DNA from: Chloroflexota bacterium
GTDB taxonomy: Bacteria; Chloroflexota; Limnocylindria; Limnocylindrales; CSP1-4
Direction of reading: 5' to 3'
Assembly (NCBI GenBank): GCA_021786385.1
Contig: JAJYNJ010000093.1
Span: 32,786 to 68,207 of the forward strand
DNA: 35,422 bases
This document shows positions 1-35,224 of the stretch, one piece after another. Both the position numbers and the translations under genes were made by a program. Positions within the stretch are counted from its first letter, which is position 1. Every line of letters begins with the position of its first letter. The notes beneath the pieces are model-generated. The model did no database searches. It was not told the origin of the DNA and saw only the letters and a program-made list of their open reading frames with translations.

Positions 1-264
1 GTCGTCGTCAAGCCGACACCCCGCGAAGAGATGACCAAGTCGGGCATCGTCCTGCCCGACACAGCCAAGGAGAAGCCCCAGGAGGGGAGCGTCCTCGCCG
101 TGGGCCCCGGCCGCATCCTCGATGATGGCGCGCGCGAGGCGATGGACGTCCAGGTGGGCCAGAAGGTCCTCTACGCCAAATACGCGGGCACCGAGTTCAA
201 GGTGGATGGCGAGGAGTACCTCATCATCAGCCAGAAAGACATCCTCGCGATCGTCGAGGAGTAG
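1..264 (+). CDS. groES: Co-chaperonin GroES (5'-truncated by window edge)
   Basis: This is the GroES co-chaperonin, the heptameric lid of the GroEL folding chamber in the cytoplasm. The reading frame is open from base 1, so roughly the first ten residues lie outside the window; the ATG at 31 is internal. The mobile-loop segment [16 protein letters not shown], the roof segment [12 protein letters not shown] and the ending DILAIVEE match the family well. groEL follows 81 bp downstream, the usual groES-groEL operon order. A second, divergent GroES lies at 27305-27604, so this copy is the likely housekeeping partner of GroEL. Identity is certain; only the start is unseen. Confidence 0.96.
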
Positions 265-1965
<1,701 letters not shown>

Positions 1966-21450: not shown

Positions 21451-21495
21451 TATCCTAGTCCCATGCCCTTGACCCGCGCGTGCCCTCTCCCGTGA
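21451..21495 (+). promoter_or_regulatory. dnaE promoter and 10-codon upstream reading frame
   Basis: TATCCT (21451-21456) is followed by exactly six bases and an ATG at 21463. This ATG opens a short frame, MPLTRACPLP, that stops at TGA 21493-21495. The stop overlaps an in-frame dnaE GTG at 21492 (GTGA). The short frame may be translated from a leaderless mRNA and coupled to dnaE. A base error that breaks a normal dnaE start at 21463 is the alternative. Confidence 0.45.
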
Positions 21496-24400
21496 CGATC
21501 GCTCCCAACGACTTCACCCACCTGCACGTCCACACCGAGTTCAGTCTGCTCGACGGCCTCGGGCGGATCGACGACTTGGTCGCCGAGGCATCCGCGCTCG
21601 GGTTCGACTCTCTGGCGATCACGGATCACGGCGCGCTCTACGGGGCCGTGGCGTTCTACCAGGCCGCCACCCAGCGCGGCATCAAGCCGATCATCGGCGT
21701 CGAAACGTACGTGGCGCGCCGTTCGATGACGGACCGCGACGGCAGGGCAGACGCGCAACCGTACCACCTGGTCCTGCTGGCGAAGGACTGGACCGGCTAC
21801 CAGAACCTGTGCCGGATCATCACCGATGCGCACCTGCAGGGGTACTACTACAAGCCGCGCATCGATCGGGACTACCTCGCGCAGCACGCCGAGGGCCTGA
21901 TCGGCATGTCCGCTTGCCTGGGTGGCGAGATCCCCAAGGCGCTCGAGGTCGACGACTGGGAGGGCGCCCGCCGGCTCGCCGGCGCCTACCGCGACATCTT
22001 TGGTCCCGGCAACTTCTACCTGGAGCTCCAGGACCACGGGATCCCGCTGCAGCGGCGGCTCAACGAGCAGCTGCTGCGTCTCGCGCCCGAGATGGGACTG
22101 CCCCTCGTCGCCACCAACGACTTGCACTACGTCCGGCGCGCCCAAGCCGAGGCCCACGACGTGCTCCTCTGCATCGGGACCGCGTCGACGCTCGACACGC
22201 CGAACCGGATGCGCTTCGAGAGCGACGAGTTCTACCTCAAGAGCGCGGCCGAGATGGAGGCGCTCTTCCGCGACGTGCCGGAGGCCCTCCGCAACACCCG
22301 GCGCATCGCCGAGATGGTCGACCTGAAGCTGCAGTTCGGCCAGCTCCGTCTGCCGGACTTCCCCGTCCCCCCGGGGCATACCGCGGAGTCCTGGTTGCGC
22401 GCGGAGTGCGAGCGGGGCCTGCAGGAACGCTACCCGGCGGTCACGCCGGAGATCCGCGAACGGCTCGACTACGAGCTCGACGTGATCTGCCGCATGGGCT
22501 ACGCGGGGTACTTCTTGATCGTCGCCGACTTTACCCGCTTCGCGCGCGAGCAGGGGATCGCCATCACGTGTCGCGGCAGCGCCCCCGGATCGATCGTGAC
22601 GCACACGCTCGGCATCACGCCGGTCGACCCGATCCGCTACGAGCTGCCGTTCGAGCGGTTCCTCAACCCCGATCGCGTCACGATGCCCGACATCGACGTG
22701 GACTTCGAGGACGCGCGTCGCGACGAGGTCATCAACTACGTCACGCGCAAGTACGGCGCCGATCATGTCGCCCAGATCATCACGTTCGGCACCATGCAAG
22801 CGCGCGCGGCCATCCGGGACGTCGGGCGCGTCCTCGGCATGCCGTACGGGGACGTCGACCGGATCGCCAAACTCGTCCCGAACCAGCTCGGGATCCACCT
22901 CGAAGAGGCCATCGCGCAGGCGCCCGAGCTGCGCGGGCTGTACGACGGCGACCCGCAGATCCATCGTCTGATCGAGCTTGCCAAGCAGGTCGAGGGGGTC
23001 GCGCGCAACGCCTCGACCCACGCCGCCGGCGTCGTGATCAGCCGCGAGCCGCTGACCGAGATCATGCCGCTCCAGAGAGCGACCAACTCGGAAGCGCTCA
23101 TGACGCAGTACGAGATGCACGGCGTCGACGCGCTGGGGCTCCTCAAGTTCGACTTCCTGGGTCTCTCCAACCTGACGATCCTGCGGCACGCGGTCGATAC
23201 GATCCGCCGGCACCGCGGCGTCGAGATCGACCTCGACCAGATCCCGCTCGACGACGCGAAGACGTTCGAGCTGCTCGCCTCGGGCGAAACGACGGGTGTC
23301 TTCCAGCTGGAGTCGGCGGGGATGCGCCGCTACATCCGCGAGCTGCGTCCGACATCGGTGTACGACCTGGCGGCGATGGTGGCGCTCTACCGCCCCGGCC
23401 CCATGGACAACATCCCGGCCTACATCCGGCGCAAGCACGGGGAGGAACCGATCACCTACCTGCACCCGCTCCTCGAGCCGTACCTCTCCAAGACGTACGG
23501 CATCTTCGTCTACCAGGAGGACATCATGGCGGCGGCCAAGGCGCTCGCCGGCTTCAGCGGCCCCGAGGCGGACACCCTCGGCTACGCCATCCGCAAGAAG
23601 AAAGACGACGTCCTCCAGCAGATGATGGCGAAGTTCGTCCCGCAGGCCGCGGAGCGCGGCGTGAAGCCCGACGTGATCGAGGCCGTCTTCAAGGCCTTCG
23701 CCCCGTTCGCCCGGTACGGCTTCAACAAGGCGCACGCCACGACGTACGGCCTGGTCGCGTACCAGACCGCGTACCTCAAGGCGAACTACACGGTCGAGTA
23801 CATGGCCAGCGTGTTGACCGCGTTCCGCGACAACACCGACAAGGTGGCCGCGGCGGTGGCCGAGTGCCGGCGCCTGGGGATCGAGGTCCGCCCGCCCGAC
23901 GTGCACCGCAGCCACCTCGACTTCACCGTCGAGGGAGACGCCATCCGTTTCGGGCTGCTGGCCGTCAAGAACGTGGGCCAGGGCGCCATCGAGTCGATCA
24001 TCACCGCCCGCGAGGCCGAGGGCGATTTCCGCTCGCTGACCGACCTGTGCCGACGCGTCGACCTGCGCCTGGTGAACAAGCGTGTGCTCGAGTCGCTGAT
24101 CAAAGTCGGGGCCCTGGGGCGCTTCGGGCACCCAGCACAGCTGCTGCTCGCGCTCGACGACGCGATGGCCGCCGCGCAGGCCGAACAGCGGGACCGCTCG
24201 AGCGGCCAGACGTCGCTCTTCGGCGACGCAGCGGAGCCCGAAGCGCTGGAGCGGCCGCTGCCGCCCGCGACGGAGGCGCCGCCCCGCGAGCGGCTGCGCT
24301 GGGAGAAGGAGTTGATCGGGCTCTATCTCTCCGACCATCCGCTGGCCGCGCTGGCACAGCAGCTCGACCGCTACGTCACCGCGTACAGCGGGGATCTCGG

Positions 24401-25418
24401 GGAAGAGATGGACCAGCAGCGGGTGGTCGTCGGCGGTGTCGTGACGGGCGTCCGGCGGGTGATCACGAAGTCGAAGGCCACGATGGGCGTGGCGACCCTC
24501 GAGGACCTGCAGGGAACGATCGAGGTGATCGTCTTCCCGAAGACGTTCGAGGCGACGGTGGCGACCTGGCAGGAAGATGCGATCCTGTTGGTGGCCGGGC
24601 GGGTCGACCACAAGGGCGACGGATCGGTGGTGCTGGCCGACTCGGTCTGGACGTGGGAGGAGGCGGCCGGGCTCGGCGAGGGCGCCTTCGCCCGACAGGT
24701 GCAGTCGTTCGAGCAGGGGCGGCGCGGTGGCCGGGGAGCGGGCCGATGGGGGGCGCCGGCCGCCGTCGATGCCTCCTCGACCGGCGGCCGGCCGGGCGGC
24801 GACGGCGCGGTCGGCACTGGGCTGCGCGGCGCGGTCGGTGGTGCTCCGAACGGCCACGCCGCGAACGGCCATGCTCCGGACGGCCACGCCGGCCACGTGG
24901 TCCGGCGCGTGATCCCCCACGTCTCACCACTGCGCGGCGGGGGCATCCTGGGTGAACTCGAGATCGACGTCCCGGTGGCCACTGGGCGGGCGCCGACGGG
25001 CGGTGCGATCGGCTCGGCCGAGCGGTCGGCGCTGCCACCTAGCACGGCCCGTTCGGTGGCTTCGCTCGCGCCGCCCGCGTTCTCGGACGACGAGCCGCCG
25101 CCGCCGATCGAAGCGGAGCGCGCCGCGGCCCGCCGGGCCGCAGCGCCCACGCGTCCGCTGGAGGCGATGCCCGGGGAGGCGCTCCACGTGCGCTTCGGGT
25201 TCCACTCGGGCGAGCCGCTCGCCGAGGTGTTCGCCGCCGTCCGCGAGATCCTGCGCAGCCGCCCGGGCCAGACGCCGGTCGTGCTCGAGGTTCCGCTCGG
25301 TGACGGCCGCACGCAGCCGATGGAGCTGCGCACGCGGGTCGCCTACGACGCGGAGCTGCTGGCGGAGTTCGAGCGGCGCTTCGCCGGCGCGGTCACGCTG
25401 GAGCTCGGTGCCGACTGA
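21480..25418 (+). CDS. dnaE: DNA polymerase III alpha subunit (DnaE)
   Basis: This is the replicative DNA polymerase III alpha subunit, up to 1312 residues. The PHP domain begins at HLHVHTEFSLLDGLGRI. The polymerase active site has the motif PDIDVDFED, with catalytic aspartates near 404 and 406. The fingers follow, then helix-hairpin-helix motifs and an OB fold around residues 980-1065 (VVVGGVVTGVRRVITKSKATM). A low-complexity linker of about 155 residues rich in Gly, Ala and Pro follows, including NGHAANGHAPDGHAGH near 1124-1139. The end is a small conserved domain (ALHVRFGFHSGEPLAEV onward). No intein is present. The start is GTG 21480 or GTG 21492; the second overlaps an upstream mini-frame stop. 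It is a DnaE1-type enzyme, probably the main replicase. Confidence 0.96.
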   Translation: MPSPVTIAPNDFTHLHVHTEFSLLDGLGRIDDLVAEASALGFDSLAITDHGALYGAVAFYQAATQRGIKPIIGVETYVARRSMTDRDGRADAQPYHLVLLAKDWTGYQNLCRIITDAHLQGYYYKPRIDRDYLAQHAEGLIGMSACLGGEIPKALEVDDWEGARRLAGAYRDIFGPGNFYLELQDHGIPLQRRLNEQLLRLAPEMGLPLVATNDLHYVRRAQAEAHDVLLCIGTASTLDTPNRMRFESDEFYLKSAAEMEALFRDVPEALRNTRRIAEMVDLKLQFGQLRLPDFPVPPGHTAESWLRAECERGLQERYPAVTPEIRERLDYELDVICRMGYAGYFLIVADFTRFAREQGIAITCRGSAPGSIVTHTLGITPVDPIRYELPFERFLNPDRVTMPDIDVDFEDARRDEVINYVTRKYGADHVAQIITFGTMQARAAIRDVGRVLGMPYGDVDRIAKLVPNQLGIHLEEAIAQAPELRGLYDGDPQIHRLIELAKQVEGVARNASTHAAGVVISREPLTEIMPLQRATNSEALMTQYEMHGVDALGLLKFDFLGLSNLTILRHAVDTIRRHRGVEIDLDQIPLDDAKTFELLASGETTGVFQLESAGMRRYIRELRPTSVYDLAAMVALYRPGPMDNIPAYIRRKHGEEPITYLHPLLEPYLSKTYGIFVYQEDIMAAAKALAGFSGPEADTLGYAIRKKKDDVLQQMMAKFVPQAAERGVKPDVIEAVFKAFAPFARYGFNKAHATTYGLVAYQTAYLKANYTVEYMASVLTAFRDNTDKVAAAVAECRRLGIEVRPPDVHRSHLDFTVEGDAIRFGLLAVKNVGQGAIESIITAREAEGDFRSLTDLCRRVDLRLVNKRVLESLIKVGALGRFGHPAQLLLALDDAMAAAQAEQRDRSSGQTSLFGDAAEPEALERPLPPATEAPPRERLRWEKELIGLYLSDHPLAALAQQLDRYVTAYSGDLGEEMDQQRVVVGGVVTGVRRVITKSKATMGVATLEDLQGTIEVIVFPKTFEATVATWQEDAILLVAGRVDHKGDGSVVLADSVWTWEEAAGLGEGAFARQVQSFEQGRRGGRGAGRWGAPAAVDASSTGGRPGGDGAVGTGLRGAVGGAPNGHAANGHAPDGHAGHVVRRVIPHVSPLRGGGILGELEIDVPVATGRAPTGGAIGSAERSALPPSTARSVASLAPPAFSDDEPPPPIEAERAAARRAAAPTRPLEAMPGEALHVRFGFHSGEPLAEVFAAVREILRSRPGQTPVVLEVPLGDGRTQPMELRTRVAYDAELLAEFERRFAGAVTLELGAD

Positions 25419-25451: not shown

Positions 25452-25967
25452 CTACGTCGAGACCGGGATCGTCGGGACGCCCGCGAAGTAGATCGCCTCC
25501 TTCTCGCGGGCCACGATCCAGTCGGCAAGCGCGCTGTTGACGAGCAGCGTGCCTGCGTCGTGCATCTGCAGCTGGCCGCCACTCAGGTAGGCGATCGTCG
25601 CCGTCGTCAGGGGCACCATCGGCCCGCGATGGGCCAGGCTCCGCAGCGGCGCGACGCCGGGGTACGCATGCAGCTCGCCGAGGACACCGTATGGACCCAG
25701 CTGGACGTGGACCCGGTGACGCACGGTGTGTACGCGTCGCTGTCGGTCCTGTGACGGGTCGGTCGCCTCCACCGCGTAGAGCTCGTCCCGCCGGATCTCG
25801 ACCCGCTCCAACGCGACGCGGCGGCCGTCGTCGAGGCTCTCCAGGACCGCGTCACGCAGCACGATGACCTCGGCCGCGTTGAGCGCATCGGTGAGGCGGG
25901 ATGCCGTCAGGTCGAGGGCGCCCGAGATCCGGCAATCTCCCGCGTAGCCGGCGAATCGGATCTGCAT
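25452..25967 (-). CDS. Conserved small protein, local paralogous family (member A)
   Basis: A 171-residue soluble protein with an ATG at 25967 and a GGAGG site 6 nt upstream. It shares a two-part pattern with three other proteins in the window (30015-30497, 29548-30018, 31987-32643). The first part is a SGALDLTASRLTDALN segment followed by LRDAV. The second is GVLGELHAYPG, then MVPLTTATIAYLSGG and LLVNSALADWI. The strands alternate as in a beta-rich sensor or binding domain; no catalytic motif, signal peptide or membrane helix is visible. The pattern resembles a domain of unknown function common in Chloroflexota; I do not assign a database name with certainty. It is convergent with dnaE and divergent from the ArsR operon. 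Confidence 0.8.
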   Translation of the reverse strand: MQIRFAGYAGDCRISGALDLTASRLTDALNAAEVIVLRDAVLESLDDGRRVALERVEIRRDELYAVEATDPSQDRQRRVHTVRHRVHVQLGPYGVLGELHAYPGVAPLRSLAHRGPMVPLTTATIAYLSGGQLQMHDAGTLLVNSALADWIVAREKEAIYFAGVPTIPVST

Positions 25968-26075
25968 CGCTCCCTCCTGGTGCTGGGCTCCAGTCTCCGC
26001 CGACGACGCGGGGGGATCCAGCCCCCCACTGGTACGGGGCGGCGATGGGACCGCCAGGTGGGGCGCATCTGAGCT

Positions 26076-26106
26076 ACTTGCGCAAGCACGCAATATCGGC
26101 TAGCAT
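26076..26106 (+). promoter_or_regulatory. Promoter and operator candidate of the ArsR operon
   Basis: TTGCGC (26078-26083), a 17-bp spacer and TAGCAT (26101-26106) form a good sigma-70-type promoter. An inverted repeat TTGCG-N6-CGCAA (26078-26093) covers the -35 and the start of the spacer, and a TTGCGCAA palindrome lies inside it. An ArsR dimer binding there would block polymerase, giving autoregulation. Confidence 0.55.
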
Positions 26107-26169
26107 CCGTCTGACCCGTGGTCGTTGCGCGTGAGCGCGCACCGGCCGGACGGGACGTCGGGGAGGTCC

Positions 26170-26520
26170 ATGAACGGAGATCCAGCGCGCTACCAGCTGC
26201 ACGCCGAGGTGTGCAAGGTCCTGACGGATCCGAAGCGGCTCATGCTGATCGACGCCCTCGCGGGCGGTGAACGATCGGTAGGGGAGCTCGCGGTGGTCCT
26301 TGGCGTCACGCTGGCCAACGCGAGCCAGCACCTCGGCGTGCTGCGCCATGCGGGCCTCGTCGAGACACGCCGCGAGGGCACGACCGTGCTCTACCGGCTG
26401 AGCGAACCAGAGATCGTGGAAGCCTGCCGGATCATCGAGCGCCTCGTCGCCCGACGCACCCGCCCACAGGTCTCCGCGCCCCATCCCACGGCGACACTGG
26501 CAACCACCACACGGAGTTGA
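26170..26520 (+). CDS. ArsR/SmtB-family transcriptional regulator
   Basis: A 116-residue winged helix-turn-helix repressor. The core AEVCKVLTDPKRLMLIDALAGGERSVGELA, then LANASQHLGVLRHAGLVETRREGTTVLYRL, is the ArsR recognition and wing region. Only one cysteine (in EVCK) is present, and the usual metal-binding ELCVCDL motif is missing. It may therefore sense redox state, sulfur species or another ligand rather than arsenic. The ATG at 26170 follows a GGGAGG site by 3 nt; GTG 26131 or TTG 26125 would add a tail with no family similarity. It is the first gene of the redox cluster and probably represses it. Confidence 0.9.
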   Translation: MNGDPARYQLHAEVCKVLTDPKRLMLIDALAGGERSVGELAVVLGVTLANASQHLGVLRHAGLVETRREGTTVLYRLSEPEIVEACRIIERLVARRTRPQVSAPHPTATLATTTRS

Positions 26521-26525
26521 GCACG

Positions 26526-26933
26526 ATGACGATCGGCACCCACTACACGTTCGGCACGCGCCTCGCGCGTCCCCTGGCCGAGGCCCGCCCCCTGGTGGAG
26601 GCCGCCCTGAAGACCGAAGGCTTCGGCGTGCTGACCGAGATCGACGTGGCTGCAACCATGCGGGCGAAGCTGGGCATCGAGCAGGATCCATACCTGATCC
26701 TCGGGGCCTGCAACCCGCCGTTGGCGCATCGGGCCCTGCAGGTCGATCCGTCGGTCGGCGCGCTGCTGCCGTGCAACGTCGTCCTCCGAGAGGAGGCGGG
26801 TCAGACGATCGTGGAGGCGCTCGACCCGACCGCCGCGATGGGCATCTCGGATGCCCCCGGGCTCGTCGACGTGGCGTCCGAAGCCCGCGAACGACTGCAA
26901 CGCGTGATCGCTAGCCTGGAGGTGCAGGCATGA
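26526..26933 (+). CDS. DUF302 family protein
   Basis: This is a DUF302 protein of 135 residues. It contains the family hallmarks EVLTEIDVAATM-type strand (here GFGVLTEIDVAATMRAKLG), YLILGACNPPLAHRAL and GALLPCNVVLREE. The function is unknown; members often sit with redox and sulfur genes. Two conserved cysteines (GACNP and LPCNV) could be redox-active. The ATG at 26526 is 9 nt after a GGAG sequence; a TTG at 26517 overlapping the ArsR stop is the alternative. Its stop overlaps the glutaredoxin start (ATGA). Confidence 0.92.
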   Translation: MTIGTHYTFGTRLARPLAEARPLVEAALKTEGFGVLTEIDVAATMRAKLGIEQDPYLILGACNPPLAHRALQVDPSVGALLPCNVVLREEAGQTIVEALDPTAAMGISDAPGLVDVASEARERLQRVIASLEVQA

Positions 26934-27205
26934 CCGGGACCCCCGCTCGACCCCACCGCGTCCTCGTCTTCACGACGCCGACATGCCCCTGGTGTAACCG
27001 CGCCAAGGCGTACCTGCGTGCCCACGGGGTGCCGTTCCGCGAGGTCGACGTGAGCCGTGACGTGGCCGCCGCGCGGGACCTCGTGCGGCGCACCGGCCAG
27101 ATGGGCGTGCCGGTGATCGAGATCGACGGCCGCCCGATCGTCGGCTTCGACCAGGCGCGCATCGACGCGTTGCTCGGCCTGCGGGCGAGCGCGCCGGTGC
27201 ACTGA
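26930..27205 (+). CDS. Glutaredoxin-family thiol-disulfide oxidoreductase
   Basis: A 91-residue glutaredoxin (Grx/NrdH-like) with the active site CPWC at C19-C22, the cis-proline loop GVPVIEIDG, and the IVGFD end typical of NrdH/MrxA-type redoxins. It reduces disulfides using a thiol donor; whether it uses glutathione, mycothiol or thioredoxin reductase cannot be read here. The ATG overlaps the DUF302 stop by 4 bases, so the two are translationally coupled. It is the clearest indication that this operon serves thiol redox balance. Confidence 0.94.
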   Translation: MTGTPARPHRVLVFTTPTCPWCNRAKAYLRAHGVPFREVDVSRDVAAARDLVRRTGQMGVPVIEIDGRPIVGFDQARIDALLGLRASAPVH

Positions 27206-27304
27206 CGCTCGACTGCCAGGGCTCGGCAACCGCCCAGGGGTTGGGCAGACCAGATCTGTCGGCATCCCATCGTTCCTCAGTCATCGCAAGGAGGAGTCAC
27301 TACC

Positions 27305-27604
27305 ATGGCCACTCAGGTCCAGCCGCTCGGAAGCCGTGTCCTCGTCCGCGTCCTCGCGGAGGAGAGCGTCACGAAGTCCGGGATCCTGCTCCCCGACACG
27401 GCGAAGGAGAAGCCGCAGCGCGGCGAGGTCGTCGCGGTCGGCGACGACACGGAGACCATCAAGGTCAGCGTGGGCGACCGCGTCCTCTTTCCCAAGTACA
27501 CCGGCACGGAGATCCGCCTGGAGGGCGAAGACCACCTGATCATCGACTCGAACGACCTGCTGGCGATCCTGCGGGAGACGCCCGCCGCCGTCGCGGCCGC
27601 CTGA
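27305..27604 (+). CDS. groES: Second GroES-like co-chaperonin, roof loop missing
   Basis: A GroES paralogue of 99 residues, starting at the ATG 27305 with a GGAGGAG site 8-9 nt upstream. The N-terminus QPLGSRVLVRVL and the mobile loop [16 protein letters not shown], which docks on GroEL, are intact. The segment after VVAVG is short: GDDTETIKVSVGD replaces the longer [18 protein letters not shown] of the groEL-linked copy. The roof hairpin that closes the top of the lid is thus largely absent. The tail ends in an Ala-rich extension. No groEL accompanies it; it lies 99 bp after the glutaredoxin gene and 21 bp before a DsrE-like gene. It could make mixed lids with the first GroES or serve GroEL under stress. 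Confidence 0.93.
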   Translation: MATQVQPLGSRVLVRVLAEESVTKSGILLPDTAKEKPQRGEVVAVGDDTETIKVSVGDRVLFPKYTGTEIRLEGEDHLIIDSNDLLAILRETPAAVAAA

Positions 27605-27625
27605 GCGACCGGCGAGCTGCGTCCC

Positions 27626-27958
27626 ATGGCCGACAAGCTACTGGTGGTGATCGTTTCCGACGATGTGAAGGCGTCCGTGGGGGCTCGCATGGCCGCCCGG
27701 ATGGCGGAACGCGGCACCCTCGAGGACATTCGCGTGCTCTTCTTCGGGCCGAGTGAGCGTCTGCTGGCGGATCCGCCAGCCGATCTCGCGGAGTCGCTCG
27801 CCACACTGCGCCGCCATGCACGGCCGCTGGCCTGCCAGGCGGTGGCGCAGCAGCTCGGCGTGCTGAGCCGCCTGACGGAGGTTGACACCGAGCTGGTGCC
27901 GGCCGGCGAGGAGGTCGAGCGCCGGCTGCGCGACGGCTACGAAATCATGACCTTCTAA
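27626..27958 (+). CDS. DsrE-like small protein
   Basis: A 110-residue protein resembling the DsrE/DsrF-like superfamily, whose members handle sulfur atoms as persulfides. It has the pattern KLLVVIVSDDVKASVGARMA, EDIRVLFFGPSERLLA, a single cysteine at C70 in RPLACQAVA, and the conserved end GYEIMTF. C70 would be the sulfur acceptor. No signal peptide is present, so it is cytoplasmic. It follows the second GroES by 21 bp and is probably in the same operon. Confidence 0.82.
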   Translation: MADKLLVVIVSDDVKASVGARMAARMAERGTLEDIRVLFFGPSERLLADPPADLAESLATLRRHARPLACQAVAQQLGVLSRLTEVDTELVPAGEEVERRLRDGYEIMTF

Positions 27959-28064
27959 GGCGGACAGCGATGCGCCTGTTGCTGCCGGGTCGGCACGGCC
28001 GGGGATCGCGGCAGGGGTCGCACACGGGATCGGGCGGACCGCGTTGCGGCTCGGACCGGCGACG

Positions 28065-28667
28065 ATGAGCCGTCCCTGTGATCCTGCCGCACTGGCCTGC
28101 AGCGTGGCCGGATCGCTGCACGAGGCCGGTTCGTCGCTGCGCGCCGTGCTCAGTTTGCGGTTCGTGGCGGAGGCACTCGTCTGGAGCGTCGCCGCGCTGC
28201 TGGCCTTCGGGCTCGTGGCTGCCATCATCCCGAACCCGATCTTCGGGCGGAGCATCCCCCCGGCGCCGTTCGCGATCGCCGTCTGGCTGCTCTCGGCCCC
28301 GTTGATGGGGCTGATCGGGGCCACCTACGGTCGAGCGGCCCGTGAACGGGCGGCCGCTCTCGCCCCGTCGTCGTCGGGTCTGCTCGTGTCGTTGGGCACG
28401 GTCGGGACGGCGGGCGAGGCGGAGCCCGAGGGGCGTGGCACCACCGCCGCCACGATCGGCAGCCTGGCCGCCTTCTTGGCGATCGGCTGCCCGGTGTGCA
28501 ACAAGGTGGCGCTGCTGTTGCTCGGGGCGAGCGGCGCGCTCACCGTGTTCGCCCCGCTGCAGCCCGTGATCGGGGCGGCCTCGCTCCTGCTGCTTGCCGG
28601 GACGCTGGTTTGGCGGCTGCGCCTCCTGGCTCGTGGGGTGGCCTGCGCGGTACCGGCACGAGCCTGA
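28065..28667 (+). CDS. Membrane protein with intramembrane CPVC motif, unknown function
   Basis: A 200-residue integral membrane protein with four to five hydrophobic helices (about 38-55, 68-88, 129-150, 155-170 and 170-188). A CPVC motif (C142-C145, in IGCPVCNKVALLLLG) sits inside the third, near the membrane face. This is the same spacing as thioredoxin-type active sites. A quinone- or thiol-linked redox role like that of DsbB/VKOR-type proteins is possible, but the fold is not one I recognise. The ATG at 28065 is chosen with a weak GGA site; the TTG at 28044 is an alternative. It is the last plus-strand gene of the redox cluster. Confidence 0.75.
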   Translation: MSRPCDPAALACSVAGSLHEAGSSLRAVLSLRFVAEALVWSVAALLAFGLVAAIIPNPIFGRSIPPAPFAIAVWLLSAPLMGLIGATYGRAARERAAALAPSSSGLLVSLGTVGTAGEAEPEGRGTTAATIGSLAAFLAIGCPVCNKVALLLLGASGALTVFAPLQPVIGAASLLLLAGTLVWRLRLLARGVACAVPARA

Positions 28668-28729
28668 CGCGGGGTCCGCGGCTCCGGCGCAGGCTTGCGG
28701 CCGGGCCCGCAGGGCAGGGGACCGCGGCT

Positions 28730-28746
28730 GCTCGACGTGGTCGAGC
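28730..28746. terminator. Small hairpin between convergent genes
   Basis: A 7-bp stem (GCTCGAC at 28730-28736 with GTCGAGC at 28740-28746) with a three-base loop lies between the convergent membrane protein and isochorismatase genes. There is no T tract, so termination is only suggested by position. Confidence 0.25.
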
Positions 28747-28775
28747 CCGACGCGCCGGCGCTCGCACCGGGCCGT

Positions 28776-29363
28776 CTACCGTCCGACGATGGCGCGGACG
28801 ATCTGGTCGGTGGTCCGCACGCGCCCCAACCGCGGAAAGATCCGGGTCACCGTGTGCGCGTGGTCTTCCGCGTTGCGCGCGGTCATGGCGTCGACGGCGA
28901 AGATCTGCTGGTAGCCGCGTTCGTAGGCGTCACGGGCCGTCGACTCGACGCCGATGTTGGTCGAGATGCCGCCCAGGATGATCGTCGTGATGCCCCGTCG
29001 ACGCAGTTGCAGGTCGAGCTCCGTGCCGTAGAAGGCGCCCCACTGGTGCTTGGCGATCACGAGGTCACCGGGCTCCGGGCCGAGCTCCGGGATGATGTCC
29101 GACCAGCCCTGTGGAGGCGGTCCGCCGGGCGGCGGTGCCTCGTCGGCGATGGGACGGAGCGCGTCGAGACAGTCCGCGGACGTGGTCACGTGGACGAGCA
29201 CGACAAGGGCCCCGGCGCGCCGGCAGACGTCGGTCAGGCGACGGGCGTTGGCGACCACCTCCCGCGCGGAGATGGGCGCGGTCGACCCGGCGACGATCCC
29301 GTTCTGAAGGTCGATGAGGACGAGGGCGGTCGATCGGGGATCGAGCGGTGGCAGGGCATCCAT
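28776..29363 (-). CDS. Isochorismatase-fold hydrolase with Gly at the Cys-nucleophile position
   Basis: A 195-residue isochorismatase-like hydrolase. The catalytic Asp is D18 (ALVLIDLQNG) and the Lys is K105 (LVIAKHQWGAF). The family signature GGISTNIGVESTARDAYERGY has glycine (G138) where cysteine hydrolases of the family (nicotinamidase, N-carbamoylsarcosine amidase) have the nucleophile. EntB and PhzD, true isochorismatases, also lack that cysteine, so a non-amidase reaction is possible. The ATG at 29363 has an AGGTG site about 6 nt upstream; the GTG at 29369 is less likely. No siderophore or phenazine genes are near. It is convergent with the redox cluster. Confidence 0.9.
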   Translation of the reverse strand: MDALPPLDPRSTALVLIDLQNGIVAGSTAPISAREVVANARRLTDVCRRAGALVVLVHVTTSADCLDALRPIADEAPPPGGPPPQGWSDIIPELGPEPGDLVIAKHQWGAFYGTELDLQLRRRGITTIILGGISTNIGVESTARDAYERGYQQIFAVDAMTARNAEDHAHTVTRIFPRLGRVRTTDQIVRAIVGR

Positions 29364-29547: not shown

Positions 29548-30018
29548 TCAGGGGCGACCTGTTCCGATGAGCCTCGTCGACTCCGCCACGGCGATCATCT
29601 GGGTGCGGTTGACCAGCAACAGGGCGAAGTGGCTGATCACCCGCCGGTCGGCCAGCGAGCGAGCGCGGGCGCTCGTCATGGCCACGAAGCGTGGGTCACT
29701 GGCGTCGACGAATCCGGCCAACGTCTGCTCGTGATACAGGTATACGGAGCCGGTGATCGCGTGGCCCGACGTGAAGAGGATCATGCGCCGCGGGCGCCTC
29801 TCGATGGTCGGGCGCTCCAGTTGGCGCAAGGGATCGACGGGTTCGCTCGGCAGCTCTACTGCCTCGCGCTGACCGATGAACGCGATCTCGTCTTGGTTGA
29901 GCAGCAGCTCCGGCATCGTCAGGTGCGTCGGGTCGCCGTTCCGGCGCAGCAGCCGCTCCCGGTCTGCCCTGGCGGCCCCCTGCGATCCCACAGCGACCCT
30001 CGACGGCGGACCGGTCAT
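29548..30018 (-). CDS. Conserved small protein, local paralogous family (member C)
   Basis: A 156-residue soluble protein. LLRRNGDPTHLTMPELLLNQDEIAFIGQ aligns with LLGWHGEDPVGVAPELWL and MIAQREP of member D (31987-32643), and ITGSVYLY...RFVAMTSARA...LLLVNRTQMIAV follows the common second half of all four members. The N-terminal RLSD/N-type segment seen in the others is missing. Its ATG overlaps the stop of member B (ATGA), so the two are coupled. I do not recognise a catalytic motif; a small binding or regulatory domain is the best reading. Confidence 0.75.
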   Translation of the reverse strand: MTGPPSRVAVGSQGAARADRERLLRRNGDPTHLTMPELLLNQDEIAFIGQREAVELPSEPVDPLRQLERPTIERRPRRMILFTSGHAITGSVYLYHEQTLAGFVDASDPRFVAMTSARARSLADRRVISHFALLLVNRTQMIAVAESTRLIGTGRP

Positions 30019-30497
30019 CGGGGCGCGATCGGGCGCAGGATGCGGTCGTGCCCGGCGTCCCGGATGCTCGTCGCCGCGGCAGTGCTGACGATCACCACCG
30101 GCGTGGCGGCGAGGCTCGCGCCGCTTGCCGCCAGGACGATCGTCGCGTCCGTCAACGGCACGAACGCCGGACGGCGATGCAGGTTCGCGAGGGGATCGGC
30201 CGCCGCTGGTCCGTGCAGCTCGCCGAAGACCGCAAACCCGCCCACGGCGATTTCCACCCGCCGGCGCCGCGTCCAGATGCGCCGCTCCGATGGCGGTTGA
30301 TCGTCCGGGATGATCAGGAGCACCTGATCGAGCGACACGTCCAACGCGGGAACGGCCGAGGCCGATTGGCTCGCCAGATCCGTCACGGTCGCGTCGACCA
30401 GGCGTAGCCCAGTGACGCGGTTCACCGTGTCGCTCACACGCTCATGCGCCCCGCAGAGCGTGCCGGCCACGATCCGATCGGCCTGGAACAGGCGCAC
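30015..30497 (-). CDS. Conserved small protein, local paralogous family (member B)
   Basis: The conserved part starts near VRLFQADRIVAGTLCGAHERVSDTVN and continues with LVDATV, FAVFGELHGPAA, AFVPLTDATIVLAASG and a C-terminal VIVSTAAATSI. These match member A (25452-25967) segment by segment. I use the GTG at 30497, where similarity begins, giving about 160 residues; it has no good ribosome binding site. The open frame continues to 30695 but that portion overlaps the neighbouring gene and looks unlike the family. The start is therefore uncertain and a frameshift near 30500 cannot be excluded, since an ATG at 30516 lies in another frame. It is followed by member C with a 4-base overlap. Confidence 0.65.
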   Translation of the reverse strand: MRLFQADRIVAGTLCGAHERVSDTVNRVTGLRLVDATVTDLASQSASAVPALDVSLDQVLLIIPDDQPPSERRIWTRRRRVEIAVGGFAVFGELHGPAAADPLANLHRRPAFVPLTDATIVLAASGASLAATPVVIVSTAAATSIRDAGHDRILRPIAPR

Positions 30498-30663
30498 CAG
30501 CAGGGGGTTCGTGCATGGAGTCTCGTGCTCAGTCGAACCTTCCAGCGCTGGATGAGCAGGACGGCCTCGTAGGCGGGAGACGAGGCCGGCAACCCGGCCG
30601 GTCACTTCATGCCACGGGCGGCCCACCCGCGCATCGCCGGAGCGCTCTGGCGCCTGGGCTCGT

Positions 30664-31389
30664 TCACGGGACCACCAGGTGGACCGGGTTGCCACGGATC
30701 GTCACTTTCCATGTCGTGCGGTCGTGGGCTGCTCCGCCGTAGTAGGTGTAGGCGACTTTCCACCAGCCGTTCTGGGGCGCCGTGTAGTCGGAGGGGATCG
30801 GGATGTCGACCACGAGCCAGTGTCCGTTGAAGTAGCGGTGGCCGCTCGAGGTCGTGACGATGCCGGGACCGTTGGGCGTCGTGGTCGATTGATTCGGCAA
30901 CGGGTACGGAATCGAGACGTTCGAATCGTTCGTGCCGGCGTCATACCAACGGAAGGGCACAGCCGTGTAGCCGGTCGCCGTCGGCATCAGGAACTGCATG
31001 TACGCGTTGCCGTTCGCGTCGCCCGGGTCGAAGAGGCGGATCTCCATCGTCTTGCCGGCATGGATCGCGGCGATCTGGGCCATGTAGAGGTTCGTCACGC
31101 CCGAGTTCATGTTCGCGAAGATCGACATGGACCCGAGGCCGTAGATCTGCGGCTGGGTGCCACCGCCGGTGCCCGCCACCGCCTTGATCGAGAACTGGTT
31201 GGAACCGTTCCCGTAGCCAGATGTCTGCACGTTCAAGCGGTAGATGCCCGTCAGTGGGCTGGGGATCGTGTAGAACGGCAACCACTTGCCGAGGTAGTCG
31301 CCGGTGTTCGAGTGCGACACGTACTGACTCGAGCAGGACGTGGGGTATACGGTGGCCACCAACGGCGTGCCGGCCATCGATTCAACCAA
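30664..31389 (-). CDS. C-terminal part of a TadG-like pilus-associated protein (5'-truncated)
   Basis: The 241-residue frame resembles the C-terminal domain of large TadG-like proteins of Chloroflexota, with KTMEIRLFDPGDANGN, FRWYDAGTND, the strand-rich GHRYFNGHWLVVDIPIP and the ending IRGNPVHLVVP. It lacks a signal sequence and the N-terminal TadG membrane anchor that such proteins have. The frame begins at a TTG (31389) eight codons after an in-frame stop at 31411-31413; ATG 31377 is the next start. A truncated remnant is the most likely reading, though expression as a separate domain is possible. It lies in a decayed stretch next to frameshifted helix-turn-helix remains. Confidence 0.65.
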   Translation of the reverse strand: MVESMAGTPLVATVYPTSCSSQYVSHSNTGDYLGKWLPFYTIPSPLTGIYRLNVQTSGYGNGSNQFSIKAVAGTGGGTQPQIYGLGSMSIFANMNSGVTNLYMAQIAAIHAGKTMEIRLFDPGDANGNAYMQFLMPTATGYTAVPFRWYDAGTNDSNVSIPYPLPNQSTTTPNGPGIVTTSSGHRYFNGHWLVVDIPIPSDYTAPQNGWWKVAYTYYGGAAHDRTTWKVTIRGNPVHLVVP

Positions 31390-31986: not shown

Positions 31987-32643
31987 CTACCGCCCGGCAG
32001 GGGCGACTTCGACGTTCACCGGCCTCGCGCTGACGGGCACCGCCACGACATGAGGGGTGGCTGTGGCGATCGCGTCGATGCGACCCCGGTTGACCAGCGC
32101 GAAGGCGTACCGGACCGATTCTGGCTGCGGGTCGCCCGCCGCCTGTACCTCGACGTCGGTCATGGGCACGAAGAGGATGTCGCTCGCGCCCATGTACATC
32201 GTCATCGACCCGCCCTCCGGGAGGTGCACGTTGCCGGTGATCAGGAGGTCGTGGCTGACAATGCTCAGTCGCTGCGTCTGGCGAGTCACGCGGAAGCCCT
32301 CGCGGTCCTGAATGGGCTGTGGCTCGCGCTGTGCGATCATGGTGATGGCGCGACGCGTGAGCCAGAGTTCGGGCGCCACGCCGACGGGGTCCTCACCGTG
32401 CCAGCCCAGCAGCCGACCGTCGCGCAAGCCCACGAGTCCCTCGCTCAGATTGACGAAGTCGGATAGCCGGTTGAAGCCGCCCACGGAGAGCGTCCCCGCC
32501 AGGCGCAGACCCGGCCCCAGGATCTCGACCGGCTCGGCGCGGCCGACCTCCGCTCGCTCGTCGGCGTGCTGGCTCCCCGTCTCGGCCGCCTGTAATCGCC
32601 GGATCGCTGCCGTGGAGCCTGGCCCAGGTTCGAGGGCGTTCAT
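31987..32643 (-). CDS. Conserved small protein, local paralogous family (member D)
   Basis: A 218-residue protein with the start ATG at 32643 and a GAGGG site 8 nt upstream. After a variable 55-residue N-terminus comes LAGTLSVGGFNRLSDFVN with LRDGRLL, then PELWLTRRAITMIAQREP, ITGNVHLPEGG, ILFVPMTDVEVQ and FALVNRGRIDAIA. These match members A, B and C in order, and this is the longest member because it has both N- and C-terminal halves. No membrane helix or signal is seen. It sits 111 bp downstream of the TadG-like gene on the same strand, so it may belong to the pilus operon. Confidence 0.78.
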   Translation of the reverse strand: MNALEPGPGSTAAIRRLQAAETGSQHADERAEVGRAEPVEILGPGLRLAGTLSVGGFNRLSDFVNLSEGLVGLRDGRLLGWHGEDPVGVAPELWLTRRAITMIAQREPQPIQDREGFRVTRQTQRLSIVSHDLLITGNVHLPEGGSMTMYMGASDILFVPMTDVEVQAAGDPQPESVRYAFALVNRGRIDAIATATPHVVAVPVSARPVNVEVAPAGR

Positions 32644-32754
32644 CGCTGTTACCCTCTGAATCCGTCGGCGCGTCTTTGCGCTTCCCCATTCCTCGTCATG
32701 GCCGTTCCTCGTCCCGCTGTGCTGTCTACTCTCCATCGGACCTGGTGGCTGTCG

Positions 32755-34182
32755 TCACTCCACCAGGCCGATCTGGCCGTGGTAGAAGAGGTTCGCGTCA
32801 TAGTTGACCTGCAGGTTGCTGTTGCCCTCCACCTCCAGTGTGCCGGCGATGAACTGGCCGGTGACCGTTGCCTTGGATCCGCCGTGGTCGTCCCCGCCCT
32901 CGATCTCGACCTCGCTGACTGGCACGTAGACTGTCCCGCGGATGCCGGCAGTGCTGCTCCCCTCGATCTCCACGTCTCCCTGGTGGGCGGGTACGCGATC
33001 CTGCCAGACGACCAACCCCGCGTACGGGCTTTGCTGCAAAGGCCACAAGTTGAGACCGGCCGATCCTGCGGTCTTGATGTCGCCCATTTTCCCGTTGTCG
33101 GTCGGGCTATCGGGATCGACGGTGTTGTAGAGCAAGACGCCTCCGCCGGGAGTCAGGTTGCCCGCCGACACGACGCTCGTGAGGCTGGCGTTCCCGTTCA
33201 GCGTGAGTCCGCCACCGGCAAGGATGTAGGTTCCGGGCGTTAGATATACGGTCGCCCTACCCGAGATCCTCAAGCCGCCCCAGTACACCCCCGGAGACAG
33301 GACGAAAACCCCCGGCCCCTCGATCTTGCAGGGCTTGGGCTCGGCAGGAGTGCCGCCCCCGTTCCCCGGGCAGCTCGAGCTCGGCGCCTGGTGGGGATCC
33401 GGCCCGACTAGGCCGGCCAGTGGGTCCAGCAGTGGTGCGGGGACCTGCTGGGGCTGCGGGGCCCAGCTGCCCGGCGGAGGGCCTGGATACCCCGTCCAGG
33501 TCCCAACCACGTGCGTCCACTGCGTCGACACCGTAGGGTGCCCGTCGACCGCGACCGCCCCGTCCTTGCCGGTCGAGCAGTTCGAGTTGACCATGAGGCC
33601 GCCGGCTGTCGTCAGGTGGGAGTCGCCGTGGTGATCGCCGCCGCCGATCTCGACCGATTCGCAGACGTTCTGGCGGAGTATCCCATCCTCGGTTTCCTGA
33701 CCCAGGATGAGCATGCTGTACGGCGCCGCGGTGGCGTGGATCGACGCCACCGCGCGAGCCGAGACCATCCAGCACGACTGCCCGACCACATTGGCGAAGC
33801 TCGTGCGCATCGGCCGGGTCGTAATGATCTCGACCGCATCACTGTTGCCCCGGTTGGGTCCGCTGGTGGGTGGGTGGTTGATGGTGACCGAGGTTCCCTG
33901 GCCGTTGCAGCGGGCCGGGTCGGCCGGATCGAAGCCGTTCGCCGCGGCGATCGACAACGCAGCCGAGCGGATATCCGTACCGTCCCGCAGTGCCTCGGCG
34001 CCCGCCAGCGCGCTAGTGTCCGCCGCGCTCTGCGCCTGCTCGCGGTTGACCCACGCCATCCCCCCATCGATGAGCAGCCCCGCCATCGCAAGCAGTGCGA
34101 CCAGAAAAAGGGCGAAGACGACGATCACCTGGCCTCGTTCGCTGGATTGGGGGCTAGCTGGATCTCGGCCCTGCGTAGGCAT
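32755..34182 (-). CDS. TadG-like pilus assembly protein with beta-helix-like domain
   Basis: A 475-residue protein with a TadG N-terminus (RGQVIVVFALFLVALLAMAGLLIDGGMAWVN, then AQSAADTSALAGAEA), a single membrane anchor and a large extracytoplasmic part. The rest is rich in short Gly/Val strands with several similar motifs: VEIGGGDHHGDS, VEIEGSSTAGIRGTVYVP and VEIEGGDDHGGS. This suggests a parallel beta-helix. Tad/Flp pili build on TadE/TadF/TadG pseudopilins. The ATG at 34182 has an AGAGGAG site 5-6 nt upstream and is preferred over GTG 34203, which overlaps the previous gene. It is the third gene of the pilus operon. Confidence 0.88.
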   Translation of the reverse strand: MPTQGRDPASPQSSERGQVIVVFALFLVALLAMAGLLIDGGMAWVNREQAQSAADTSALAGAEALRDGTDIRSAALSIAAANGFDPADPARCNGQGTSVTINHPPTSGPNRGNSDAVEIITTRPMRTSFANVVGQSCWMVSARAVASIHATAAPYSMLILGQETEDGILRQNVCESVEIGGGDHHGDSHLTTAGGLMVNSNCSTGKDGAVAVDGHPTVSTQWTHVVGTWTGYPGPPPGSWAPQPQQVPAPLLDPLAGLVGPDPHQAPSSSCPGNGGGTPAEPKPCKIEGPGVFVLSPGVYWGGLRISGRATVYLTPGTYILAGGGLTLNGNASLTSVVSAGNLTPGGGVLLYNTVDPDSPTDNGKMGDIKTAGSAGLNLWPLQQSPYAGLVVWQDRVPAHQGDVEIEGSSTAGIRGTVYVPVSEVEIEGGDDHGGSKATVTGQFIAGTLEVEGNSNLQVNYDANLFYHGQIGLVE

Positions 34183-34199
34183 CGGGACTCCTCTGGGCA

Positions 34200-34697
34200 T
34201 CACTGGATGTAGACAATGCTCTGCGCCTGGACGGTGAACGAGCCGCCCACGATGCTCGACACGATCGGCGTCAGCAAAGTCACGGTCGCGCTGATCCGCA
34301 CGACGACACGGCCGTCGCTGCGGGTCCCATCGGGGTAGAAACAGGTTGTCGGGCTCGTCGTGTCGTCGTAGGTGTTGCCCGACGACGCGAAGCTCGTACA
34401 GGCACCCGGCGCGCCCACAATCTGGCTCGGGCTTACGGCCACGCCGGGCGTGAACACCGCGGCCCGGATCGCATCGAACTTGGACTGGGTATCCGCGGGC
34501 GTGACCATCGCGACGCGCGCCGCCTCCCGCGCTGCCTCCGCAATCGTGTGCTGTGCGTAGACGACCCGGCCGAAGTCGATGAGGGCCATGAAGAGGAGCA
34601 GGAGGAGCGGCATCACGATGGCAAACTCAGCCATCGCCTGTCCGCGCCCTATGCGGCAGGCCAGCGGTGGCCGGCCTGTGCGTGAGAGCGCGATCAC
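34200..34697 (-). CDS. TadE-like pseudopilin (second copy)
   Basis: A 165-residue TadE-family protein. GRGQAMAEFAIVMPLLLLLFMALIDFGRVVY contains the GxxxxEF prepilin-like processing region, followed by a hydrophobic helix and AAREAARVAMV. The GTG at 34697 overlaps the stop of the preceding TadE gene (GTGA), implying coupling. The upstream open frame to 34865 lies inside that gene and is not used. It would be processed and assembled as a minor component of a Tad/Flp pilus. Confidence 0.9.
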   Translation of the reverse strand: MIALSRTGRPPLACRIGRGQAMAEFAIVMPLLLLLFMALIDFGRVVYAQHTIAEAAREAARVAMVTPADTQSKFDAIRAAVFTPGVAVSPSQIVGAPGACTSFASSGNTYDDTTSPTTCFYPDGTRSDGRVVVRISATVTLLTPIVSSIVGGSFTVQAQSIVYIQ

Positions 34698-35224
34698 CGC
34701 AGAATCGTGGCTTCGGTCTGGGATCCCATGATCACAGGGTGTCCCCAGAGCAGGTCGAGCAAAGGCGTGACCAGCGTCATGGAGTAGGTGACATGGACGC
34801 GCACCCTCGTCGCGGTCGCGCCATTGGCCACTGTACAGGTGGCGAACGAGGTGCCGTCGCCGCACTGGGGCGGGTCGAACGCGAGAGCGGCGTGGTCGAG
34901 CCCGTAACCCTGGTCAGCGATCCGGCGCGCCACGTTGTCCGGGTCGGGAGAGTAGTTGACGCTCGTCGCGCCCGGCGGGCACGGAACTGAGTCGGCCGGC
35001 TGCGGGTTGGCGCACCACTTGAGATAGTTTGTTCCCTGCGCTGCGTAGAGGGCTGCCTCCCGGGACGCGTTCGAGACAGAGACGAAGGCCGTGAAGACGC
35101 GCGCTCCATCCACCACCGAGAGCGTGGCCAGCATGAGGAGAGGGAAAAGCAGCGCGAACTCCACGAGCGCCTGACCGCGCCCGCTTGGGAATGCCTTCGC
35201 GGCGCCCTGTCGGTGAACGCCCAA
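34694..35224 (-). CDS. TadE-like pseudopilin (first copy)
   Basis: A 176-residue TadE-family protein with SGRGQALVEFALLFPLLMLATLSVVDGARVF, the GxxxxEF processing site and membrane helix, then SNASREAALYAAQG. Four cysteines in the distal part may form disulfides. The start is a TTG at 35224 with a GAGGG site about 6 nt upstream. A matching promoter lies 45-70 bp upstream. It is the first gene of the operon TadE-TadE-TadG-like and then member D. The tadABC/cpa machinery is not in the window and may be to the right or elsewhere. Confidence 0.88.
   Translation of the reverse strand: MGVHRQGAAKAFPSGRGQALVEFALLFPLLMLATLSVVDGARVFTAFVSVSNASREAALYAAQGTNYLKWCANPQPADSVPCPPGATSVNYSPDPDNVARRIADQGYGLDHAALAFDPPQCGDGTSFATCTVANGATATRVRVHVTYSMTLVTPLLDLLWGHPVIMGSQTEATILR

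What the first reader, a model, noticed from the sequence alone, without database searches (positions are those of the whole stretch)
27305..27604. GroES paralogue without its roof loop and without a GroEL
Compared with the groEL-linked copy (1-264), the mobile loop is preserved almost exactly, but the roof segment between VAVG and VG(D/Q) is cut by about 6-7 residues. In GroES the roof closes the top of the lid; phage T4 Gp31 also has an altered roof to fit a larger client. A lid with an open top could fold larger or particular redox-sensitive clients.
Basis: partly seen in the sequence, partly recalled or inferred. Interest (0 to 1): 0.6.

Follow-up and report, generated by a model that had tools for sequence, protein, structure and literature searches.

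The report
Roofless GroES paired with a glutaredoxin
The gene is a real second GroES (the lid of the GroEL protein-folding barrel) whose roof hairpin is missing, and it belongs to a widespread, apparently undescribed lineage encoded almost always next to one kind of glutaredoxin in sulfur- and thiol-redox gene clusters, which suggests a redox-linked spare lid rather than a lid for oversized clients.

Summary
ORF 27305-27604 is a genuine GroES; compared with the groEL-linked copy its mobile loop is kept and its roof segment is 9 instead of 16 residues, and an AlphaFold model has no roof hairpin. It is not chance. All 65 non-redundant stand-alone copies I collected have a roof of 8-10 residues; 91 of 96 groEL-linked copies have 15-17. 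48 of the 65 sit directly behind a gene for a YruB-type glutaredoxin. In 251 Chloroflexota genomes this GroES and that glutaredoxin co-occur in 24, only the glutaredoxin occurs in 1, neither in 226. The surroundings (ArsR, DUF302, DsrE, rhodanese, TusA, OsmC, thioredoxin reductase-like enzymes) point to thiol and sulfane-sulfur chemistry. 'Without a GroEL' holds only locally: the genome has two GroELs, and four well-complete relatives have just one, so it most likely caps the ordinary GroEL. The larger-client idea is not supported: eight actinobacterial genomes live on a single short-roof GroES, one short-roof copy lies beside groEL, and roofless lids are known (T4 gp31, Arabidopsis Cpn10). 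Best reading: an alternative open-topped lid, co-regulated with a glutaredoxin under an ArsR-type sensor.

The parts
26170..26520 (+). ArsR-type repressor gene with two conserved cysteines (HAEVCKVL and EACRII); ORF can also be read from 26125
   Evidence: PF01022 1.7e-11 and NF033788 HTH_metalloreg 5.3e-24; both cysteines conserved in the ArsR next to this GroES in other loci
26526..26933 (+). DUF302 gene; its ORF overlaps or abuts the ends of ArsR and of the glutaredoxin gene, suggesting one transcript
   Evidence: PF03625 2.4e-26; overlap read from ORF coordinates
26930..27205 (+). YruB-type glutaredoxin gene, CPWC active site, directly upstream of groES
   Evidence: PF00462 3.1e-20; TIGR02196 GlrX_YruB 96.2 bits, above cut-off 88.55; conserved partner
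27305..27604 (+). short-roof stand-alone groES
   Evidence: PF00166 2.7e-28; structure matches GroES chains
27356..27406 (+). mobile loop with GroEL-binding tripeptide I-L-L (27383-27391)
   Evidence: alignments A1/A2; tripeptide tally
27443..27469 (+). shortened roof segment DDTETIKVS, 9 residues instead of 16
   Evidence: no strand in the model
27626..27958 (+). DsrE-like gene, probably same transcript (21-nt gap)
   Evidence: no Pfam hit itself; its homologue in L007 gives a weak DsrE match, 18.3 bits against a cut-off of 22.7, over its full length
28044..28667 (+). membrane protein with GCPVCNK motif, no family, follows groES in the nearest relatives
   Evidence: homologues downstream in 7 loci; no Pfam hit
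1..264 (+). full-roof groES (5' end cut by window), comparison copy
   Evidence: PF00166 1.9e-30
346..1965 (+). groEL linked to the full-roof groES; likely shared partner
   Evidence: PF00118 2.9e-82

Best explanation
The gene encodes an alternative GroES ring. Seven copies are expected to cap the cell's ordinary GroEL through the conserved mobile loop, but because the roof hairpin is missing the dome has an open top. It is made together with a YruB-type glutaredoxin (and in this genome a DUF302 and a DsrE-like protein) under an ArsR-type repressor whose two conserved cysteines make a thiol, persulfide or metal signal plausible. Under such stress the cell would raise lid supply and thiol-disulfide/persulfide repair together, so that proteins with oxidised or sulfur-modified cysteines can be reduced and refolded. 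Shown here: the roof loss, the conserved loop, the conserved gene pair and its sulfur/thiol-redox surroundings. Inferred: ring formation, GroEL capping, induction signal, clients.
For: Short roof in all Grx-linked copies (48 of 48 with 8-10 residues). Gene pair: Grx directly upstream in 28 of 30 loci with readable upstream DNA among L005-L035 and in all 24 short-GroES genomes of an even sample of 251 Chloroflexota, found with GroES alone; reverse search with Grx: 25 of 26 top places adjoin the short GroES. The lineage groups together on a tree built without the roof columns (88/81, 40 rows). Surroundings: ArsR, DUF302, Trx, DsrE, TusA, rhodanese, rhodanese-metallo-beta-lactamase fusion, OsmC, TrxR-like and other FAD oxidoreductases. 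Mobile-loop tripeptide hydrophobic in the rows where it was read. G008, G025, G028, G029 (91-95% complete) have the short GroES and only one GroEL, the one beside the full-roof GroES. No cysteine in 43 of 48 Grx-linked GroES, so GroES itself is unlikely to be the redox switch.
Against: No experiment; co-expression is inferred from gene order only, and in this genome 99 nt separate Grx and groES. No promoter was identified. One genome keeps the operon (ArsR-DUF302-Grx-rhodanese-methyltransferase-OsmC) without the GroES, and L029 keeps GroES without Grx, so the two are separable. The roof loss may be neutral. Heptamer and GroEL binding were not modelled.
Confidence: 0.55

Rival explanations
1. 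Ordinary extra GroES: a second, redundant lid gene. The roof is a dispensable, length-variable loop and its loss has no particular effect; the linkage with Grx only reflects stress co-regulation.
For: Roof length varies in working GroES: 8-9 in the only GroES of eight actinobacterial genomes, 11 in groEL-linked Bacteroidota copies, 8 in groEL-linked L248. Roofless Arabidopsis Cpn10(1)/(2) are described, and Cpn10(2) forms functional homo-oligomers in vitro (PMC4242682).
Against: The short roof is kept without exception over a lineage that spans several phyla, while nearly all genomes checked keep a separate full-roof copy beside groEL; a neutral loop should sometimes lengthen.
Confidence: 0.25
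2. Open-topped lid for larger or protruding clients, as proposed for T4 gp31.
For: Roof hairpin absent in the model; fold matches gp31 among others (1g31_A Z 8.9); gp31 lacks roof loops and this is believed to help fold the larger gp23 (PMC6318259).
Against: gp31 also has a longer mobile loop, which enlarges the cage (22 vs 16 residues, PMC6318259); here the mobile loop has ordinary length. Short roofs occur in sole housekeeping GroES. No large client gene is conserved next to it.
Confidence: 0.1
3. Dedicated lid for the genome's stand-alone second GroEL (contig C62).
For: Both unlinked genes are present in G000, G001, G002, G004 and G006.
Against: No consistent co-occurrence: G008, G025, G028, G029 have the short GroES without a second GroEL; G013 and G023 have a stand-alone GroEL without it.
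Confidence: 0.06
4. Lid or adaptor for a non-GroEL machine, for example ClpP as in the Chlamydomonas chloroplast complex (PDB 7ekq), whose Cpn20 is the top sequence match in the PDB.
For: 7ekq_R is the best PDB sequence match (5.6e-31, sum of two domains); its first domain also has a very short roof in that alignment.
Against: The top score adds two GroES domains; single-domain GroES from Thermus scores higher per domain and structure search ranks ordinary GroES first. No clpP was seen nearby. The mobile loop matches that of GroES1 in the same genome.
Confidence: 0.04

Closest known systems
GroES / Cpn10 (Pfam PF00166), e.g. Thermus and M. tuberculosis GroES
   Same: Fold, length apart from the roof, conserved mobile loop
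   Different: Roof 9 instead of about 16 residues; not beside groEL; beside a glutaredoxin gene
Bacteriophage T4 gp31
   Same: No roof loops; alternative lid for the host's GroEL (PMC6318259)
   Different: gp31 has a longer mobile loop and only 15-16% aligned identity here; this protein is a close GroES homologue in bacterial chromosomes
Arabidopsis chloroplast Cpn10(1) and Cpn10(2)
   Same: Lack a roof loop (PMC4242682); extra lids beside full-roof ones
   Different: Plastid proteins; Cpn10(1) works only as a hetero-oligomer with Cpn20; no glutaredoxin partner seen in that paper's passages read here
Bdellovibrio GroES2 (Bd3349)
   Same: Second GroES, separate from the groES1-groEL pair, proposed to make alternative GroEL lids under its own regulation (PMC3464611)
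   Different: 117 residues, not described as roofless, regulated during predation, no glutaredoxin link in the passages read
Single short-roof GroES of an actinobacterial group (L221-L247)
   Same: Roof 8-9 residues, not beside groEL
   Different: Only GroES in most of those genomes, separate clade (100/98), no Grx upstream

Membership tests
GroES / Cpn10 co-chaperonin | Cpn10 beta-barrel domain | tested here: met
   PF00166 98.3 bits vs cut-off 21.1; structure match to 1wnr_G Z 12.1, rmsd 1.8, 79 aligned
GroES / Cpn10 co-chaperonin | Mobile loop with hydrophobic tripeptide for GroEL | tested here: met
   ILL in place of IVL; loop nearly identical to the linked copy
GroES / Cpn10 co-chaperonin | Roof beta-hairpin of about 16 residues (usual, but not strictly defining: sole GroES proteins can lack it) | tested here: not met
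   9 residues, no strand in model
GroES / Cpn10 co-chaperonin | Seven-membered ring that caps GroEL | not testable with these tools
   single-chain prediction only
groESL operon copy | groEL directly downstream | tested here: not met
   no groEL near it in L118; downstream gene is DsrE-like
T4 gp31-type lid | Missing roof together with lengthened mobile loop | tested here: not met
   roof short but mobile loop of ordinary length
YruB-family glutaredoxin (partner gene) | TIGR02196 above its cut-off and CxxC motif | tested here: met
   96.2 vs 88.55 bits; both active-site cysteines invariant in 15 rows

The most novel reading that the evidence does not exclude
A distinct chaperonin branch in which an open-topped GroES and a glutaredoxin act as one unit: the opening lets the glutaredoxin, or a thiol/persulfide exchange, reach a client held in the GroEL cage, giving reduction-coupled folding inside a chaperonin.
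Probability: 0.08. Interest if true: 0.9.

Novelty: new variant of a known kind. Interest (0 to 1): 0.52.

Why it matters
Genomes carrying spare GroES genes raise the question of what a second lid is for. Here the answer is constrained: one lineage, one structural change (roof removed), one partner gene (a glutaredoxin), one kind of neighbourhood (thiol and sulfane sulfur). That makes a vague idea, alternative GroEL lids for special conditions, directly testable, and it points to an apparently unrecorded link between chaperonins and cysteine redox repair. It also gives natural material for asking what the GroES roof does, since some bacteria use a roofless GroES as their only one.

Tried and rejected
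CIRCE (HrcA) site in the window: none with up to 3 mismatches, though the groESL promoter lies outside the window. Sigma-70 promoter and terminator scan of 25900-28800: nothing above chance. Anti-phage defence (PADLOC): no match for GroES, Grx, DsrE-like or DUF302. Pairing with the stand-alone GroEL: distribution does not fit. GroES as a redox switch: almost no cysteines. Viral origin: viral GroES structures match but no closer than cellular ones, and the neighbours are chromosomal genes. Foldseek matches to quinone oxidoreductases and alcohol dehydrogenases reflect the GroES-like fold only. Literature searches for a glutaredoxin-GroES operon found none in the held library, which is not proof of absence. 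The first roof-length script used a lazy pattern that misread a few rows (L075, L099, L138, L162, L166, L175); the alignment-based count replaces it.

Full report
What is there. The ORF at 27305-27604 encodes 99 residues and is a clear GroES (PF00166, E 2.7e-28). It differs from the groEL-linked copy at 1-264 by seven residues missing from the roof segment; the mobile loop is almost the same. AlphaFold gives a GroES fold with no roof hairpin, while a full-roof Chloroflexota GroES modelled as a yardstick has short strands there. Solved GroES chains are the best structural matches (1wnr_G Z 12.1, rmsd 1.8 over 79; 1p3h_B Z 12.0, rmsd 3.2 over 88), with gp31 lower (1g31_A Z 8.9, rmsd 3.5 over 89).

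Is it a lineage trait? A scan of 84,980 species genomes seeded with this protein returned 80 loci. From all loci collected I built a non-redundant set of 161 GroES and measured the roof on an alignment. groEL-linked: 96, of which 91 have 15-17 residues, four Bacteroidota copies have 11, one actinobacterial copy has 8. Directly behind a glutaredoxin gene: 48, all with 8-10. Neither: 17, all with 8-9 (three are members of the same lineage, the rest an actinobacterial group). These rows are related to each other, so counts are not independent tests; still, on a tree built without the roof columns the Grx-linked copies fall in one group with three relatives (88/81) and the roof state needs only two changes.

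The glutaredoxin partner. In the first 31 related loci the glutaredoxin lies directly upstream, same strand, in 28; of the other three, L019 is a contig edge, L029 has ArsR there instead, and L032 has none but a FAD oxidoreductase reading frame follows the GroES. An even draw of 251 Chloroflexota genomes searched with the GroES alignment gave 24 genomes with a short-roof copy, every one with the glutaredoxin upstream. Searching the same genomes with the glutaredoxin alignment gave 26 top-scoring places (138 bits or more) in 25 genomes; all but one adjoin the short GroES. The exception, G317, keeps the operon ArsR-DUF302-Grx-rhodanese-methyltransferase-OsmC with the GroES missing (gene names there read from the translation by likeness to L011). 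The glutaredoxin is YruB-type, with both active-site cysteines invariant.

Neighbourhood. In the window: ArsR, DUF302, Grx, GroES, a DsrE-like protein and a GCPVCNK membrane protein. Elsewhere: thioredoxin (L015), DsrE and TusA (L011), rhodanese (L010, L011), rhodanese fused to a metallo-beta-lactamase domain (L029), OsmC (L011, L027, L031, L033), thioredoxin-reductase-like enzymes (L035, L213), two-domain thioredoxin/glutaredoxin proteins (L033, L035), FAD oxidoreductases of the sulfide:quinone reductase kind by appearance (L012). The ArsR proteins share two cysteines. This is thiol and sulfane-sulfur chemistry; that reading of the neighbours rests on known roles of those families. Hosts include Chloroflexota, Actinomycetota (among them Conexibacter sp. 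S30A1, complete genome) and Dormibacterota, by record titles.

Which GroEL? The genome has two. Four relatives of 91-95% completeness carry the short GroES and a single GroEL, the one beside the full-roof GroES, so the short GroES must use that one if it uses any GroEL. Genomes with a second stand-alone GroEL do not consistently carry the short GroES.

Does a missing roof mean special clients? In an even draw of 246 Actinomycetota, a separate short-roof group appeared. Twelve of those genomes were checked: eight have exactly one GroES (roof 8-9, not beside groEL) and one GroEL. One genome has a short-roof copy directly upstream of groEL (L248). So the short roof serves general folding. The literature agrees that roofless lids exist: gp31 (PMC6318259) and Arabidopsis Cpn10(1) and (2) (PMC4242682). 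A stand-alone second GroES as an alternative lid was proposed for Bdellovibrio (PMC3464611).

Conclusion. The most likely mechanism is an alternative, open-topped lid for the ordinary GroEL, co-regulated with a glutaredoxin in a thiol/sulfur stress module. What is new is the near-obligate pairing of one GroES lineage with one glutaredoxin subfamily; I found no description of it in the library searched.

Noticed in passing
G000:C62:162886-164406 (outside the window): A second, stand-alone groEL in the same genome, present in several members of the genus but without consistent link to the short GroES.
   Followed up: partly
window 28044-28667: Membrane protein with a GCPVCNK motif and no known family, conserved downstream of the GroES/DsrE genes in the nearest relatives (7 loci).
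   Followed up: partly
window 25452-25967 (-), 30015-30695 (-), 31987-32736 (-): Three proteins in one window that match each other at about 30% identity, two with DUF6812 similarity: perhaps a small local family of unknown function.
   Followed up: partly
window 32755-34865 (-): Tad/TadE-type pilus assembly genes; similar genes also lie downstream of the Grx-GroES pair in L020 and L022.
   Followed up: no
   Followed up: partly
L263 (G317): Operon ArsR-DUF302-Grx-rhodanese-methyltransferase-OsmC without the GroES: a natural deletion for comparison.
   Followed up: yes
window 21492-25418: DNA polymerase III alpha (dnaE) lies just upstream of the cassette in the genus (also L006-L008, L115), so the cassette has a fixed chromosomal site there.
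   Followed up: partly
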